Source of the DNA: Acididesulfobacillus acetoxydans
GTDB lineage: Bacteria > Bacillota > Desulfitobacteriia > Desulfitobacteriales > Desulfitobacteriaceae
DNA: 64,000 bases
Direction: 5' to 3'
NCBI RefSeq assembly: GCF_902729405.1
Contig: NZ_LR746496.1
Span: 3,534,001-3,598,000 of the forward strand
The notes beneath the pieces were generated by a model. That model did no database searches. It had not been told where the DNA came from and saw nothing but the letters and a program-made list of their open reading frames with translations. Below are positions 13,473 to 29,103 of the stretch, piece after piece (position 1 is the stretch's first letter; each line of letters opens with the position of its first letter). The translations under genes were made by a program, and so were the position numbers.

Positions 13473-13955
13473 TTACTTGGTGCTTTTGGCAGCCTGTGCA
13501 CCATCCAAACCAAATCGTTCTTGCTTTTTCCCGATAGCTAAGGCCGCCACAAATGCCAAGACTATGATGATGATGGATATTTTTAAAGCGTACTGGGCAC
13601 CAGCCTGGAAAGCGAGTTGCTTGAGAGCCAACAAAAGATGTAACGCTTGTTTGGGGTTTGTTACTCCGTAGACGGAAGGACTCATTCCATAGCTCGAAAT
13701 GCCCTGTAGTACATGATTACTTAAATTCTGTAGATATGTGTTGAAAGCGGTATCCGTGTGAGTTTGCATCAAGGTACTAAGAATTGCTGTTCCGATCGAG
13801 CCGGAGACATTACGGAACGTATTCTGCAATGCTGTAGCACGACCGATTAATGGTTTGGGAACCGCATTCATCCCGGCGGTAGAAATGGGCATGTTTGTTA
13901 ATCCCTGCCCAGCTGCCGGATCATGTACACAACCATAATGCTGAAAAAAGACCAC
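13473..13955 (-). pseudogene. C-terminal third of DHA2-type MFS transporter (frameshifted)
   Basis: Codes for the last part of an EmrB/QacA-like 14-TM drug exporter, including GMNAVPKPLIGRATALQNT and the final helices. The true family sequence joining it to the middle piece reads RQLGQGLTNMPISTAG across two frames. One G is missing near 13909. Its apparent independent Met is not a real start. Confidence 0.88.
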
Positions 13956-14536
13956 TCTAGATTAAGACCAGTGAACAACACCGATGCGATAAGCATCATA
14001 CTCATGCCCACGAGCGCAATCGGTTTTATTCCAATCCGATCGAACAGTTCTCCACTGACCGGCATTAGGATCCCTGTAACTACCGCCCCTGGCATCGTGA
14101 TTAGTCCGGCCTGCAAAGGGGTTAACCCAAGGCCATTCTGCAAAAAGACCGGTAACACGAACAGTGTGGCTAACATTGCCATACTGATTAGGCTGGTAGC
14201 AATAGCGGAAATAAGAAATACATAAATCTTAAAAATCCGCAAATCGAGCATCGGGTTTGCTGAAGTGAGCTCAAGCACAACAAAGAGTGAAAGTAGGATT
14301 CCTGAGGCAGTAAAGAGTACGACGATTTCTAGGGATGTCCACCCACTGTTGGGGGCATCTGACAGAGCATAGAGTAGGCAAAAGAAACCAGTCACCGATG
14401 TCACAAAACCGGGTAAGTCAAATTTATCCGTTACTTTTTCTTTAAAAGTTGGTAAAAACATTTTAGACATAAAAATATTGATGATCCCCACTGGGACATT
14501 TATGTAAAATACCAAACGCCAATTAAGGTATTCCAC
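13898..14536 (-). pseudogene. Middle third of DHA2-type MFS transporter (frameshifted)
   Basis: About 200 residues of MFS transmembrane sequence starting EYLNWRLVFYINVPVGI, the typical segment after TM5 of EmrB-like proteins. It ends abruptly at RQLGRD, where the next frame carries the expected continuation. Together with the flanking pieces the total is about 500 residues, a normal length for this family. Confidence 0.88.
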
Positions 14537-15023
14537 AAAATATCCACTTAAAGTTGGCCCAAAAGCAGGCGCAAAGAATCATGGCGATTCCCCAGATGCC
14601 CATGATGGATCCTCTTTTTTCTGGCTTAGAGAGACTAAAAAGCATAGCCATACTGATCGGCATTAACATCGCCCCACCAATGCCTTGTATCACCCGAAAG
14701 GTGATCATGGACTGCACATTCCAGGCCATTCCACATAAAGCGGATCCCAGAGTAAATAGGGTAAGAGCGAACGTATAAACTTTACTATAGCCAAATCGAT
14801 CTCCCACATATCCGCTGGCAGGCGTTAACATGCCAACTGTCAACAAATACACTGTGACTACCCAAACTATCCGGTTTTGCGTTGTCGCAAAGACTGCCAT
14901 CATCTTGGGAATCGCTACATTCACAACACTTGAGTCTAACATGGCCATGAAAACCCCGAGCACGATCGTGACCACAGTGAGAAGTTTGATACCAATCTTT
15001 TCTTCAAACAGCAAGCTCATCAC
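14523..15023 (-). pseudogene. N-terminal third of DHA2-type MFS transporter (frameshifted)
   Basis: First 150 residues of an EmrB/QacA-type exporter, with the motif-A-like loop GYVGDRFGYSKVY and motif C region (IMGIWGIAMIL). After MIL the frame turns to nonsense (CACFWANFKWIFCGIP) while the neighbouring frame reads APAFGPTLSGYFVEYLN, the correct continuation. One extra base lies near 14558-14565. The gene starts 47 bp after marR and a large palindrome fills that gap. Confidence 0.88.
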
Positions 15024-15030
15024 CCTTTGA

Positions 15031-15055
15031 CTTTATCTTTATAGTAAAGATAAAG
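15031..15055. promoter_or_regulatory. Probable MarR operator before the efflux genes
   Basis: Perfect inverted repeat: arms CTTTATCTTTA and TAAAGATAAAG separated by TAG. It lies between marR and the MFS start codon, overlapping where a promoter for the efflux genes would be. The same core, TATCTTTA-N3-TAAAGATA, occurs again at 15838-15862. Confidence 0.8.
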
Positions 15056-15070
15056 TTTCAAAAAAAACTT

Positions 15071-15523
15071 TTATTCCCCATGGAGAATTACAGTTTGAAT
15101 TTCTGTCATTAAATCAAAAAGGGCTTGGCACTTTTCCGAGCCTAGTTGCTCAAACAATCCCGAAAATTTGCGTCTCTGGCGATCCATAGCTTCCTGAAGA
15201 ACCAGTTCGCCTGCGGTCGTGAGGGAGAATTCTGCAATTCGGTGATCTATTACATTCTGATGACGGACAATTAGCTTCTGCTCAATCAAGCGCCCCGTGA
15301 TAGTGGTTACAGGACCGGATGTGATACCCATAATACCTCCAATTTCAGAGGCTGTACAAGAGCCTTTAAGTTGAATTTGCCGCAGCAGGTAAGCTTGGGC
15401 TACGGTTAAAGCGCCGTGTTCCGTAGGACCGATTTCCATAAAACGAAGCATTAAACGGGCAAATTCAGGCATGACAACTTCCAATTGACTGACGCATGGG
15501 TTGGGTGTTGTAGATTTTGTCAT
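15071..15523 (-). CDS. MarR-family transcriptional regulator
   Basis: 150 residues from the Met of MTKSTTPNP. It has a MarR winged helix: the recognition region CTASEIGGIMGITSGPVTTI is followed by the wing containing a DHR-like signature (VIDHRIAEFSLT). It likely represses the adjoining efflux genes and itself through the two palindromes described. The open frame extends further upstream, but that extension is the dispersed repeat read in antisense and is not conserved-looking. The AAGGA before the chosen start lies within the CCTTTC/GAAAGG hairpin of that repeat, so the repeat supplies or covers the gene's ribosome binding site. Confidence 0.88.
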   Translation of the reverse strand: MTKSTTPNPCVSQLEVVMPEFARLMLRFMEIGPTEHGALTVAQAYLLRQIQLKGSCTASEIGGIMGITSGPVTTITGRLIEQKLIVRHQNVIDHRIAEFSLTTAGELVLQEAMDRQRRKFSGLFEQLGSEKCQALFDLMTEIQTVILHGE

Positions 15524-15536
15524 AGCAAAGACCATT

Positions 15537-15754
15537 CCTTTCTGCGAAAGGCACCAACAAGGAATGAAACGTGGGCCAATCGCCGTAGATTTAATTTGCC
15601 GTCCATGCCTGTAAAAATGTACTCCGTGGGACGGTATACTACAGAGCACGCGGAGGTGAGTGGTGAAGCGGTTTGCCGCTATCTCGTATAGCAATAAGTC
15701 GCCGGAAGTTCGTTCAAGCACCAACAAGTAGGACGTTGAGCCTGTAAACTAATC
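15537..15754 (+). repeat. Dispersed ~215-bp repeat, copy 1 (no transposase)
   Basis: Same order of conserved blocks as copy 2 at 27396-27611: hairpin CCTTTCTGCGAAAGGCACC, then ATGAAAC, then GGTATACTACAG plus GGAGGTGAGTGG (28 of 31 bases match over this block), a short variable hairpin ending CGTAT, and AGCC(T/C)GTAAACT(A/T)ATC. Spacings differ by only a few bases while the intervening sequence has diverged. It sits between marR and marR's likely operator and promoter, in antisense. Confidence 0.75.
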
Positions 15755-15837
15755 ATTGTAAAGACATTACTCCCTTTTTTTAGGGTGATGTGAAGATAAC
15801 ATGTTTTAGATACCTCCTCTGACCGTATTTTATCAGG

Positions 15838-15862
15838 ATATATCTTTAATGTAAAGATATAT
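15838..15862. promoter_or_regulatory. Second probable MarR operator
   Basis: Perfect inverted repeat with arms ATATATCTTTA and TAAAGATATAT around a 3-base spacer, sharing the TATCTTTA-N3-TAAAGATA core with 15031-15055. It lies about 315 bp upstream of the marR start. Downstream of it on the minus strand are GAGGAGG and an ATG opening an 11-codon frame (MLSSHHPKKRE). This probably marks the original marR promoter and leader, now separated from marR by the repeat. Confidence 0.72.
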
Positions 15863-25587: not shown

Positions 25588-27395
25588 TCACTGTCTTACT
25601 ATTTTGCCATTAGCCAGATTATAATCCAGGGACGGACGTTTTTCAATAGGGTTTATAAAGTCCATTGCCAAACTTTTTTCTAACGAACGCCGCTATGCCA
25701 GCCCCTTCTCTATTGTCCGTAATAGGCAGTCACACCATGTTTCCTCAAAAAATGTTTGTCCAACAATATTTGACTCATCAGACAAACTTCCGGATTCAGT
25801 TGGATGTTTTAAAAGCCATTTCTGCCGCTTTCTCTAGCACAACCGCATTGTAAACCGCATTGCTTTTGATAAACCGTAAACTCCCGCTAGGGAAAATCTA
25901 CGCAATTAAAAGCAAAAGAGAACGATCTGGACACATTTGTCCTGTTTATCGTCCTCTCGCTTACCGGCCTCTAGTCCGTGCCAGCCTATCTCTTACCTAA
26001 CTAATCAGACGCGTGCTCACGTGGCCTGATGGCTATAATTTCCACCGAGGAAATCTCAACCTCCGGCCAGACCATGGCGTTCAAGAAAATCCATAAGGCC
26101 TTAACCTGTTCATCGCTCAACCGATCGACAAGGGCCTTGACATGCTCCCTCGCAACAATCACGCCAATCACCCCAAGATTATTATATCTCAAAGTTGTGA
26201 TATTTACCACTTCGCTGTTGCTGAGCATTCACGCTTATAGCTCGAACCAAGACACCGGGAACTCAAGGCGACGCATTGGACCTTGCCTTCTTTTACAAGA
26301 ATGTCTTCCGATGCCTTCCTCTTGATCTTCCGCCACCATGTCTATATATAATCTTACCAGTCTTTGTTTTGCGTCCGTACTTTTTAGCCTTATAGACCTC
26401 TCTGAAGAACCTCCGCACTATTCTAGCGAACACCTCATATCCCCACCTTGTAATGTGTTCTAATTCCCATCTTTGCTGCTTGGGAAAAACCTTTCTTGTG
26501 CCACTCAGTCCTTTTTTCAATATCGCAGCCCTCTTATTTCCCCATTTAACCTTCCGGTAGGGAAAGACTCACCCATGGAATGTTAGACGACGTTGTCACC
26601 AGGTGCTCCGCAAAAGCTCTCATTTTCTAGGTAAACCCGGGTATTTAAAACCAGATCTACTGTTCGGGCCTAGGCCCTTTTTGACCGTCCTGTGACGCCG
26701 GCGCTTGCACGGAAATACCTAGCATCCTTGCCCACCCCCTCTTTTTCGTAACTAGTTGCCGGCCGGACCACACCGGGAACACCTTCCCCCTCTCTATGCG
26801 CAGATCAAGCAGTGCTCGAACCTTTCCTTGCCTGGCTGCTGCAGCAATGATTTGCTGGTTTCGTACCCCACCGAGTTCGGCTTCATGCACTGTGTCTGAT
26901 TATAGCCCTCCTCTCAGACAGAGAATTGATACCGCCAGCTGCTCCGCGTAGTTGCTTAGATGGATTGTCACCGCCACCCTATTTTGTCGGCATCGCCGTT
27001 ACCGCCTTTCTTCGGCATTATCCAAGCCCCTCATCCTGAAATTGCTTCTGCGATGGCCCCTCCCGTAAAATGGCCCCTCCTCAAATAATCCCCTCCTTGA
27101 AAATGGCGCTTCCCCCGGCTTTTTGCTAAGCACCCCCAAACGATTCCGTACCCCATGGCCCACCTCAATGCTCCCAACGGCAATTATCTTTCGATAAGGT
27201 CTCACGGAATACCAACGGAAATTGGGTATCCGTAGATATCCGAAATATGCACCCCAGTTCGCCCAACGCGGGTAGAAGGGGCATCATCTGGTGACCACAC
27301 AAGCACGACTCGGTAATTTATTGCTTTATCGAGGCAACTATTTCTTGAACTTAGCAAGTCGCAAGCAACAAGGCGTTTACATGTGTATAAATCCG
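25588..27395. other. Gene-poor accessory region
   Basis: About 1.8 kb with at most one small gene (26001-26228). Several minus-strand frames of 60-77 codons exist (around 26293-26520, 26657-26890, 26999-27205) with basic or mixed composition; I could not tie them to a family. The inverted pair GTTTGTC (25754-25760) and GACAAAC (25781-25787) upstream of the DUF4380-like gene might be part of a sugar-regulator site. Confidence 0.45.
26001..26228 (-). CDS. Small hypothetical protein
   Basis: Up to 75 residues. The core VAREHVKALVDRLSDEQVKA followed by LWIFLNAMVWPE looks like the helical small proteins (DUF2281-like, some of them antitoxins) that carry REHVKxLVDxLSDEQ-type sequence. No strong RBS precedes the ATG. 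A GTG start at the VIVAREH position is also possible, giving about 50 residues. There is no toxin-like partner beside it. Real gene or recent remnant; function unknown. Confidence 0.45.
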   Translation of the reverse strand: MLSNSEVVNITTLRYNNLGVIGVIVAREHVKALVDRLSDEQVKALWIFLNAMVWPEVEISSVEIIAIRPREHASD

Positions 27396-27611
27396 CCTTT
27401 CTGCGAAAGGCACCGATGGGGTTATGAAACAAAAACCCATCATCCTTTCACTCTTTTTGTGCTATCCTCCTCTTGTAGGTCGCTGGTATACTACAGAACC
27501 CGAGGAGGTGAGTGGCGGGGCTGTATAGCGGCAACCCCGTATGTGTATATGGTGTCGGTCATCCGTTAAGGCATCAATGAATGGCGCAAAACAGTAGCCC
27601 GTAAACTTATC
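27396..27611 (+). repeat. Dispersed ~215-bp repeat, copy 2, upstream of IS110 transposase
   Basis: Partner of 15537-15754. Blocks: CCTTTCTGCGAAAGGCACC (27396), ATGAAAC, GGTATACTACAG (27485) running into GAGGAGGTGAGTGG, the stem GGGGCTG...CAACCCC, and AGCCCGTAAACTTATC (27596-27611). TGGTATACT resembles an extended -10 promoter. The repeat ends 78 bp before the transposase start. Strongly conserved anchors separated by variable loops, in the 5' non-coding end of an IS110 element, are what a bridge RNA would look like; that reading is inference. Confidence 0.75.
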
Positions 27612-27689
27612 TCTTCCGAAGTTGACTCGATTTCGCCGGATGACCAGTCCCTGCCATCCCTACAAGTATTTTTGCTGGAGGTACTTCTT

Positions 27690-28943
27690 TTGTTCAAAAT
27701 CTTTCGTAAAAACTGCTGTGGACTTGATGTCCACAAAACCTGGATCTATGCCTGCATCGGTATTACTGATACAAATGGCCGTACTGAGTATAAGCAAGCT
27801 CGCTTCTCTTCCTTTTCCAAGGGCCTTAGAGAGTTGGCTGATTGGCTTGCGAAATTCTCCTGTATCGAAGTTTGTATGGAATCTGCCGGCAAGTTTTGGA
27901 TTCCCGTATTCAACATCCTTGAAAAAACCTGTTTTGTTACCCTGGCACATCCCAAGTACACAAAACCTCAAAAAGGAAACAAAACGGATCGCAAAGATGC
28001 CAAATGGATCTGTGACCTCTTTATGTGCGATATGATCAAACCCAGCTTTATCCCTTCTCCTGTAATCAGGCATCTCCGTGACCTGATGCGTTACCGCTTC
28101 AAGATCACAAATATGCTGACTGGCGAGAAGAACCGTGCCCAGAACTGCCTGACTGTTTCCAACTTAAAGCTTGATGATGTCTTCAGTGATGTCTTTGGAA
28201 AGTCTGCCAGATCTATCACTACCTACATACTTGACCATCCCGGTGAACCCTTTGATGTCGCTCCCTTTGTCAATGGACGCTGCAAAACCCCTATCGAAGA
28301 GATCCAGGATGCCGTTGATGGTGCGATTTCTCCCGAGCAGGCTGTCAAGCTGCGTCAATGTCTCGCACACATTGATGAACTTGAAAACCACAAAAGGGAA
28401 ATCGAGCAGGAAATACTTTTACTTGTACAACCTTTTTCAGCCATTCTAGATTTACTTCGTACCATTCCCGGGCTCAATTCCAATCCGATGACTGCCATTA
28501 CCATTCTCTCTGAGATTGGTCCGGACATGTCCGTGTTTCCGTCATCTAAGAATCTTGTTTCCTGGGCTGGATGCTGTCCACGCAATGATCAAAGTGGAGG
28601 AAAAGTAAAATCCACCCGTATATCTCGTGCCGGCTGTTATTTGAAACCTCTTCTTGTTCAGGTTGCAAATGCACTTCTCAAGTCTAAGAAACACCCTGAA
28701 TTCAAAGAGAAGTATCACAGAATCAAGACCCGCCGGCGTCACAAAAAGGCTATCATCGCTGTCTGCAAGATGCTCTTGACCGCTATCTGGAATATCTTGA
28801 ATAAGCTGGAGCCATATACCCCCGAAGGCTTTCTGGAGCACCGCCCTGTCAATGAATCTAAGGTTCTTACAAAGGCGCAGGCTCTGGAACTTCTCAGGAA
28901 AAGAGGTTACACAATAACAGACGAATCTCCCGTAATCGTTTAA
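27690..28943 (+). CDS. IS110-family transposase (DEDD)
   Basis: 417 residues from the TTG at 27690, which has GGAGG 8 bp upstream. The N-terminal RuvC-like DEDD domain has Asp13 (GLDVHK), Glu64 (CMESAG), Asp100 and Asp103 (KTDRKDAKW). A coiled-coil middle precedes the C-terminal Tnp domain with the IPGLNSNPMTAITILSEIG stretch and NDQSGGKVKSTRISRAGC, the region that holds the catalytic Ser in IS621-type enzymes. The reading frame is intact, so the element may be active. It is one of few plus-strand genes here and interrupts the space between the xylose and hexuronate loci. Confidence 0.93.
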   Translation: MFKIFRKNCCGLDVHKTWIYACIGITDTNGRTEYKQARFSSFSKGLRELADWLAKFSCIEVCMESAGKFWIPVFNILEKTCFVTLAHPKYTKPQKGNKTDRKDAKWICDLFMCDMIKPSFIPSPVIRHLRDLMRYRFKITNMLTGEKNRAQNCLTVSNLKLDDVFSDVFGKSARSITTYILDHPGEPFDVAPFVNGRCKTPIEEIQDAVDGAISPEQAVKLRQCLAHIDELENHKREIEQEILLLVQPFSAILDLLRTIPGLNSNPMTAITILSEIGPDMSVFPSSKNLVSWAGCCPRNDQSGGKVKSTRISRAGCYLKPLLVQVANALLKSKKHPEFKEKYHRIKTRRRHKKAIIAVCKMLLTAIWNILNKLEPYTPEGFLEHRPVNESKVLTKAQALELLRKRGYTITDESPVIV

Positions 28944-29103
28944 TCCTAAAACTCCCAATGTTATTTTTTGCCATCCACAAAATGTGAATGGTTTGTTTGC
29001 TGTACGCTTTTTACTCCCTAGCCACTACCTCTTTGTTTCAAACTTGTAACCTCTCTTTCCATGTACGCGCTCAACGGCGAAGAATCCTTTGAACCCCGCG
29101 CTT

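What the first reader, a model, noticed from the sequence alone, without database searches (positions are those of the whole stretch)
15537..15754. Orphan copy of the IS110-adjacent repeat wedged between marR and its operator
The same block order and spacing as at 27.4 kb occurs here with no transposase. It lies antisense between marR and the palindrome at 15838, and its 5' hairpin coincides with the marR ribosome binding site. It may be a relic or minimal derivative of an IS110-like end, or a separate RNA element that both loci share. In either case it should change marR expression.
Basis: seen in the sequence. Interest (0 to 1): 0.62.

Follow-up and report, generated by a model that had tools for sequence, protein, structure and literature searches.

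The report
IS110 relic serving as marR ribosome-binding site
A jumping gene whose guide RNA steers it to the spot between a gene's ribosome-binding site and its start codon landed in front of a regulator gene and lost its enzyme, leaving behind an outer end that now appears to serve as that gene's ribosome-binding site; dozens of genes in related bacteria carry the same kind of leftover.

Summary
Window 15528-~15811 is a transposase-less remnant of an IS110-family element: left end (LE), most of the bridge-RNA (bRNA) gene and a probable right-end stub. It is related to the IS110 at 27387-29045 but comes from a different, divergent element. Across 25 elements, the four variable bases of the bRNA left target guide match the element's own insertion site at 95/100 positions (41±5 when shuffled); the remnant matches its own site 4/4. 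These elements insert between Shine-Dalgarno (SD) and start codon. The remnant sits exactly there, between marR's native SD (AGAGGAGGT, 15820-15812, minus) and its ATG. Its outer hairpin coincides with the marR RBS because the LE brings a replacement SD (AGAAAGGA). In the bacterial family, 47 of 54 transposase-less LE ends abut an intact start codon (0-11 of 97 at control offsets); one relic shared by two species is conserved while its flank diverged, which suggests selection. The remnant's bRNA has lost its donor-loop and closing stems and is probably dead. IS900 is a precedent for the targeting. Use of the LE as marR's RBS and any effect on marR expression are inferred, not shown.

The parts
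15521..15527 (+). Left target, CATAGCA: antisense marR start codon plus 4-nt spacer (target-derived)
   Evidence: Same place and class in all relatives; target-derived by comparison with empty paralogous sites
15528..15811 (+). IS110-family remnant: LE, partial bridge-RNA gene, probable RE stub; right boundary approximate
   Evidence: Alignment to LEs of complete elements
15536..15543 (-). Replacement SD AGAAAGGA carried by the LE, 12 nt upstream of the marR ATG
   Evidence: Sequence; anti-SD duplex -10.4 kcal/mol for the LE stretch, as strong in 1.3% of random 20-mers of the window
15537..15551 (.). LE hairpin CCTTTCTGCGAAAGG; on the marR mRNA it overlaps the replacement SD
   Evidence: same hairpin position in relatives
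15635..15640 (+). TATACT, possible -10 of the bridge-RNA promoter (inferred)
   Evidence: Sequence; not part of any promoter match
15652..15660 (+). GGAGGTGAG, nearly invariant SD-like segment; candidate right target guide (inferred)
   Evidence: Conserved in the family
15687..15693 (+). Left target guide TATAGCA, matches the element's own left target (4/4 variable bases)
15744..15754 (+). GTAAACTAATC, position of the left donor guide
   Evidence: This segment equals the RE end in complete relatives
15803..15811 (+). GTTTTAGAT, probable degenerate RE stub
   Evidence: Resemblance to RE ends such as TTTCAGACTT and TTTTCAGATTT; weak
15812..15820 (-). Native marR SD, AGAGGAGGT
   Evidence: Sequence; anti-SD duplex -11.7 kcal/mol for 15825-15812
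15827..15855 (-). marR promoter TTTACA-17-TAAAAT, overlapping the operator palindrome
   Evidence: 10 of 12; about one such match expected by chance in the region
15841..15862 (.). Operator-like palindrome, repeated at 15030-15056 before the MFS efflux ORF
15071..15523 (-). marR, 150 aa
   Evidence: PF01047 and PF12802
27387..29045 (+). Complete IS110-family sister element used for comparison (ORF from 27672)

Best explanation
An IS110-family element, guided by its bridge RNA, inserted into the interval between marR's Shine-Dalgarno and start codon. The left target guide read the antisense start codon plus spacer (CATAGCA); the nearly invariant GGAGGTGAG probably read the antisense SD (inferred). 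The LE of this IS type carries, in antisense, a hairpin and an SD-like AGAAAGGA upstream of the captured ATG, so the host gene could still be translated from read-through mRNA (inferred). The transposase and the 3' part of the bridge RNA were then lost or decayed. What remains is an immobile remnant whose outer end is probably kept because it is now marR's ribosome-binding site, inside a leader of about 300 nt between the original promoter/operator and the ORF. Shown here: homology, guide-site match, target rule, missing parts, and the commonness of such relics. Inferred: use of the LE as RBS for marR and any change in marR level.
For: Whole-length block homology to LEs of IS110 elements; covarying bridge-RNA structure, 19 of 29 pairs with compensatory changes; guide-to-own-site match 95/100 vs 41±5 shuffled, orphan 4/4; insertion rule from flanks of 8 copies, empty paralogous sites and unrelated Bacillota; native SD and promoter directly beyond the right boundary; 47 of 54 transposase-less LE ends at intact start codons versus 0-11 of 97 at seven control offsets; LE block of a relic shared by two species conserved 22/25 while the next 50 nt are 16/50; broken donor-loop and closing stems in the orphan.
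Against: No empty marR orthologue was found to prove the insertion directly. The RE stub is weak. Replacement SD-ATG spacing (12 nt) is long, and the hairpin may hide the SD. Relics were found by their LE ends, so retention is partly ascertainment; the selection argument rests on one clear species pair.
Confidence: 0.8

Rival explanations
1. Miniature element (MITE) that moved to marR with a recombinase and/or bridge RNA supplied in trans, instead of a full IS that decayed in place.
For: LE and a possible RE stub flank the remnant; mini-IS can be moved when transposase and the non-coding region are supplied in trans (PMC11187229).
Against: Single copy in the genome; the other transposase-less ends break off at different points, which fits decay.
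Confidence: 0.1
2. A still active orphan bridge RNA that uses recombinase from the sister IS110 copies in trans, for example to rearrange DNA at marR.
For: Promoter-like TATACT, target-loop stem and both guide segments are kept.
Against: Donor-loop basal stem keeps 5 of 8 and the closing stem 3 of 5 pairs (others 7.6 and 4.8), with duplex z +1.4 and +0.3; no matching donor was identified.
Confidence: 0.04
3. A host regulatory leader RNA (attenuator-like) that was captured by IS110 elements.
For: The outer hairpin overlaps the SD on the marR mRNA and alternative pairings exist.
Against: The conserved guides match the element's own junctions, and full elements with transposase are widespread in Bacillota.
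Confidence: 0.04
4. Chance: a common promoter/RBS pattern explains the similarity.
For: The core does look like a -10 box followed by an SD.
Against: Ordered similarity over about 220 nt; zero hits for the reversed pattern; covariation; guide-site match.
Confidence: 0.01

Closest known systems
IS900 (IS110 family) of Mycobacterium avium subsp. paratuberculosis
   Same: Reported to target translation initiation signals (title of Doran et al. 1997, cited in PMC8141618)
   Different: Described for a hed ORF on the opposite strand of the IS that lacks its own RBS and start codon; here the host gene keeps its start codon and the LE supplies a replacement SD, and the target rule is tied to bridge-RNA guides. 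No sequence comparison with IS900 was made
IS621 / IS110-group bridge RNA system (PMC11208160)
   Same: Structured RNA in the LE; a left target guide matching the left target and a left donor guide matching the RE end
   Different: The candidate SD-reading segment lies 5' of the left target guide here; the target is the SD-start codon interval; the marR copy has no recombinase
seekRNA of IS1111/IS110 elements (PMC11187229)
   Same: RNA from the non-coding region selects the target; transposase and non-coding region can act in trans on a mini-IS
   Different: No start-codon targeting or retained ends found in the text searched

Membership tests
IS110 family (autonomous element) | DEDD transposase gene with PF01548 and PF02371 | tested here: not met
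   None at the orphan; present in the 27.4-kb sister element. The orphan is filed as a remnant, not a member in its own right
IS110 family (autonomous element) | Long non-coding LE with bridge RNA | tested here: met
Functional bridge RNA | Target loop with a guide matching the insertion site | tested here: met
   TATAGCA vs CATAGCA; family-wide 95/100
Functional bridge RNA | Intact donor loop and closing stem | tested here: not met
   Stems broken
Functional bridge RNA | Donor guide matching the RE end | tested here: inconclusive
   Holds in complete relatives (47/48); the orphan RE stub is degenerate
Functional bridge RNA | Binds the recombinase and directs recombination | not testable with these tools
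   Needs a biochemical assay
MITE | Several near-identical short copies with both ends | tested here: not met
   One copy in the genome
IS900-like start-site targeting | Insertion between SD and start codon | tested here: met
IS900-like start-site targeting | Sequence kinship with IS900 | not tested
   IS900 was not compared

The most novel reading that the evidence does not exclude
A Bacillota-wide lineage of IS110 elements encodes the translation start site itself in its bridge RNA (a fixed SD-mimic guide plus a variable start-codon/spacer guide) and carries a replacement RBS, so insertion is nearly silent; decayed copies have become a recurrent source of new leaders and RBSs for host genes, marR among them.
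Probability: 0.6. Interest if true: 0.75.

Novelty: new variant of a known kind. Interest (0 to 1): 0.6.

Why it matters
If true, it shows how an RNA-guided mobile element can exploit the near-universal SD-start codon signal while sparing the host gene, and that its debris is reused as ribosome-binding leaders. It gives a natural set of guide-target pairs for IS110 programming, and it predicts that the leaders of many Clostridia genes, including this marR, are IS-derived.

Tried and rejected
Common promoter/RBS pattern as the whole explanation: rejected. Orphan as a direct deletion of the 27.4-kb IS: rejected, since it is divergent and carries different guides. Known Rfam RNA in the window: none. 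Empty marR orthologue in 23 related genomes and in GTDB contigs: not found, only distant MarR proteins at about 20-35% identity. Single-sequence folding of the block was uninformative for the orphan (z 0.57) and better for the IS (z -2.29). A first consensus fold without the closing stem was poor; with flanks it gave -56 kcal/mol (orphan left out) or -20.8 kcal/mol with 19 of 29 covarying pairs (orphan included). Control offsets -8 and +12 are not valid controls because they fall on in-frame codons inside the LE. The RT background mean is spoiled by sequences with no duplex, so only the rank (2.4%) is usable. An early guess that guide A was the donor guide was dropped once the empty sites showed that the bases after CAT come from the target.

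Full report
Observation. The orphan block shares with the LE of the IS110 element at 27.4 kb the hairpin CCTTTCTGCGAAAGGCACC, the 31-bp core and the terminal GCC.GTAAACT.ATC, in the same order and with spacings within about 10 nt. In its own genome only the core reaches significance by BLAST (90% over 31 bp, E 1e-4). In related genomes the best matches run over about 148 nt at 70-73% identity and are LEs followed by IS110 transposases or their remains. A core pattern found 54 places in 20 of 46 family genomes and none when read backwards.

The sister element. The window's IS110 (PF01548 and PF02371) has seven full and one truncated copies. Comparing flanks of the copies puts the LE boundary 4 nt after an antisense start codon (CATNNNN) and the RE boundary after CAAACTT, followed by antisense SD sequences such as CTTCCTCC, CCCTCTCC or AGATCCTCC. 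Paralogous empty sites of the truncated copy read TTTGGGTCATACGTAACACCTCC and GGGTCATGCGAAGCACCTCC. The NNNN is thus target-derived, and the target is the reverse complement of SD-spacer-ATG. The copy in this window (27.4 kb) sits at such a motif without an ORF behind it.

Bridge RNA. An alignment of 17 sequences gives a consensus fold in which 19 of 29 pairs have compensatory changes; with flanks and without the orphan the consensus reaches -56 kcal/mol. A segment beginning [C/T]A[T/C]NNNN matches the element's own left target at 95 of 100 variable positions over 25 elements, versus 41±5 for shuffled pairs (maximum 62 in 20,000 shuffles). The pairs were read off by eye, and some elements are related, so the shuffle is not a strict probability. 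Several mismatches are C/T and would be G-U wobbles. A later segment (GTAAACTT, GCAGACTT, GCACGCTA, GCAAGCTA, GTAGATTT) equals the RE end of the same element (47/48). This is the left-target and left-donor guide logic published for IS621 (PMC11208160). GGAGGTGAG is the obvious candidate to read the SD, but it lies 5' of the left target guide, unlike in IS621, and its role is inferred.

The marR remnant. Its left junction is GTCATAGCA|AAGACCATTCC: the marR ATG plus spacer, then LE. Its own guide is TATAGCA. On the right, GTTTTAGAT resembles an RE end and is followed by ACCTCCTCT, the antisense of a strong native SD (duplex -11.7 kcal/mol). A promoter-like TTTACA-17-TAAAAT lies immediately upstream, overlapping a palindrome that is repeated in front of the neighbouring MFS efflux ORF. 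Without the remnant the sequence would read AGAGGAGGT, a spacer of 4-6 nt, and the ATG. The donor-loop and closing stems are broken and no transposase is present, so it is most likely immobile and inactive as a bridge RNA.

Why it may stay. In antisense the LE places AGAAAGGA, complementary to the 16S tail UCCUUUCU (established for Bacillota, not checked in this genome), after a hairpin and 12 nt before the captured ATG; other LE subtypes carry GAAAGGA or GGAGG. LE-end searches and the core search recovered 97 distinct LE ends: 34 with transposase, 54 without, 9 at contig ends. Of the 54, 47 abut an ORF of at least 40 codons at the predicted base (±2), against 0-11 of 97 at seven control offsets. 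Three lie in this genome: the marR remnant and two short relics near 920.4 kb and 1180.8 kb. That is what selection on a domesticated RBS predicts, but it is one clear case, and LE-based searching biases the sample.

Generality. In the loci returned, guides again match sites that begin with an antisense start codon, and 29 of 40 transposase-bearing elements with a clear guide match sit at an ORF of at least 40 codons (the match search required a start-codon-like site, so it is not an unbiased test of the codon itself).

Relation to known work. The mechanism is described in the bridge RNA and seekRNA papers (PMC11208160, PMC11187229). Targeting of translation initiation signals is reported for IS900 (Doran et al. 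1997, cited in PMC8141618). Searches of the held literature found no description of start-codon-encoding bridge RNAs or of IS110 ends kept as host RBSs; most subscription journals are absent from that library.

Limits. No empty marR orthologue exists in the searched genomes; the RE stub is weak; there is no expression evidence. Both the LE hairpin and an upstream CATTCCTT can pair with the replacement SD, so marR may be translated less, or conditionally; only an experiment can decide.

Noticed in passing
L083, L085, L088, L089 (G001, Peptococcaceae bacterium CEB3): The left target guide changes far faster than the rest of the element: L088 vs L083 differ at 3 of 4 guide bases but 9 of 556 others, L085 vs L083 at 1 of 4 but 0 of 556; L088 and L089 each match their own insertion site fully. 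Guide diversification, or copying from the target, would be worth testing.
   Followed up: partly
window 13473-15023 (minus): The MFS transporter next to marR appears as three overlapping ORFs (14523-15023, 13898-14536, 13473-13955), suggesting frameshifts or decay of the efflux gene.
   Followed up: no
window 15030-15056 and 15841-15862: The same TATCTTTA..TAAAGATA palindrome stands before the MFS efflux ORF and before marR, a likely MarR operator pair.
   Followed up: partly
L012, left flank: The IS110 copy has a tandem duplication TAATTCCTGTTCATGTG at its left junction.
   Followed up: no
window 27380-27386: The 27.4-kb IS110 sits at a start-codon/SD-like motif with no ORF behind it (ATG TAA).
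   Followed up: partly
L223 and L224 (own genome, near 920.4 and 1180.8 kb): Two further short LE relics before host genes, both also present in G001.
   Followed up: yes
window 15528-15570 (minus): An upstream CATTCCTT in the marR leader can pair with AAGGAATG at the replacement SD, a possible alternative to the local hairpin.
   Followed up: partly
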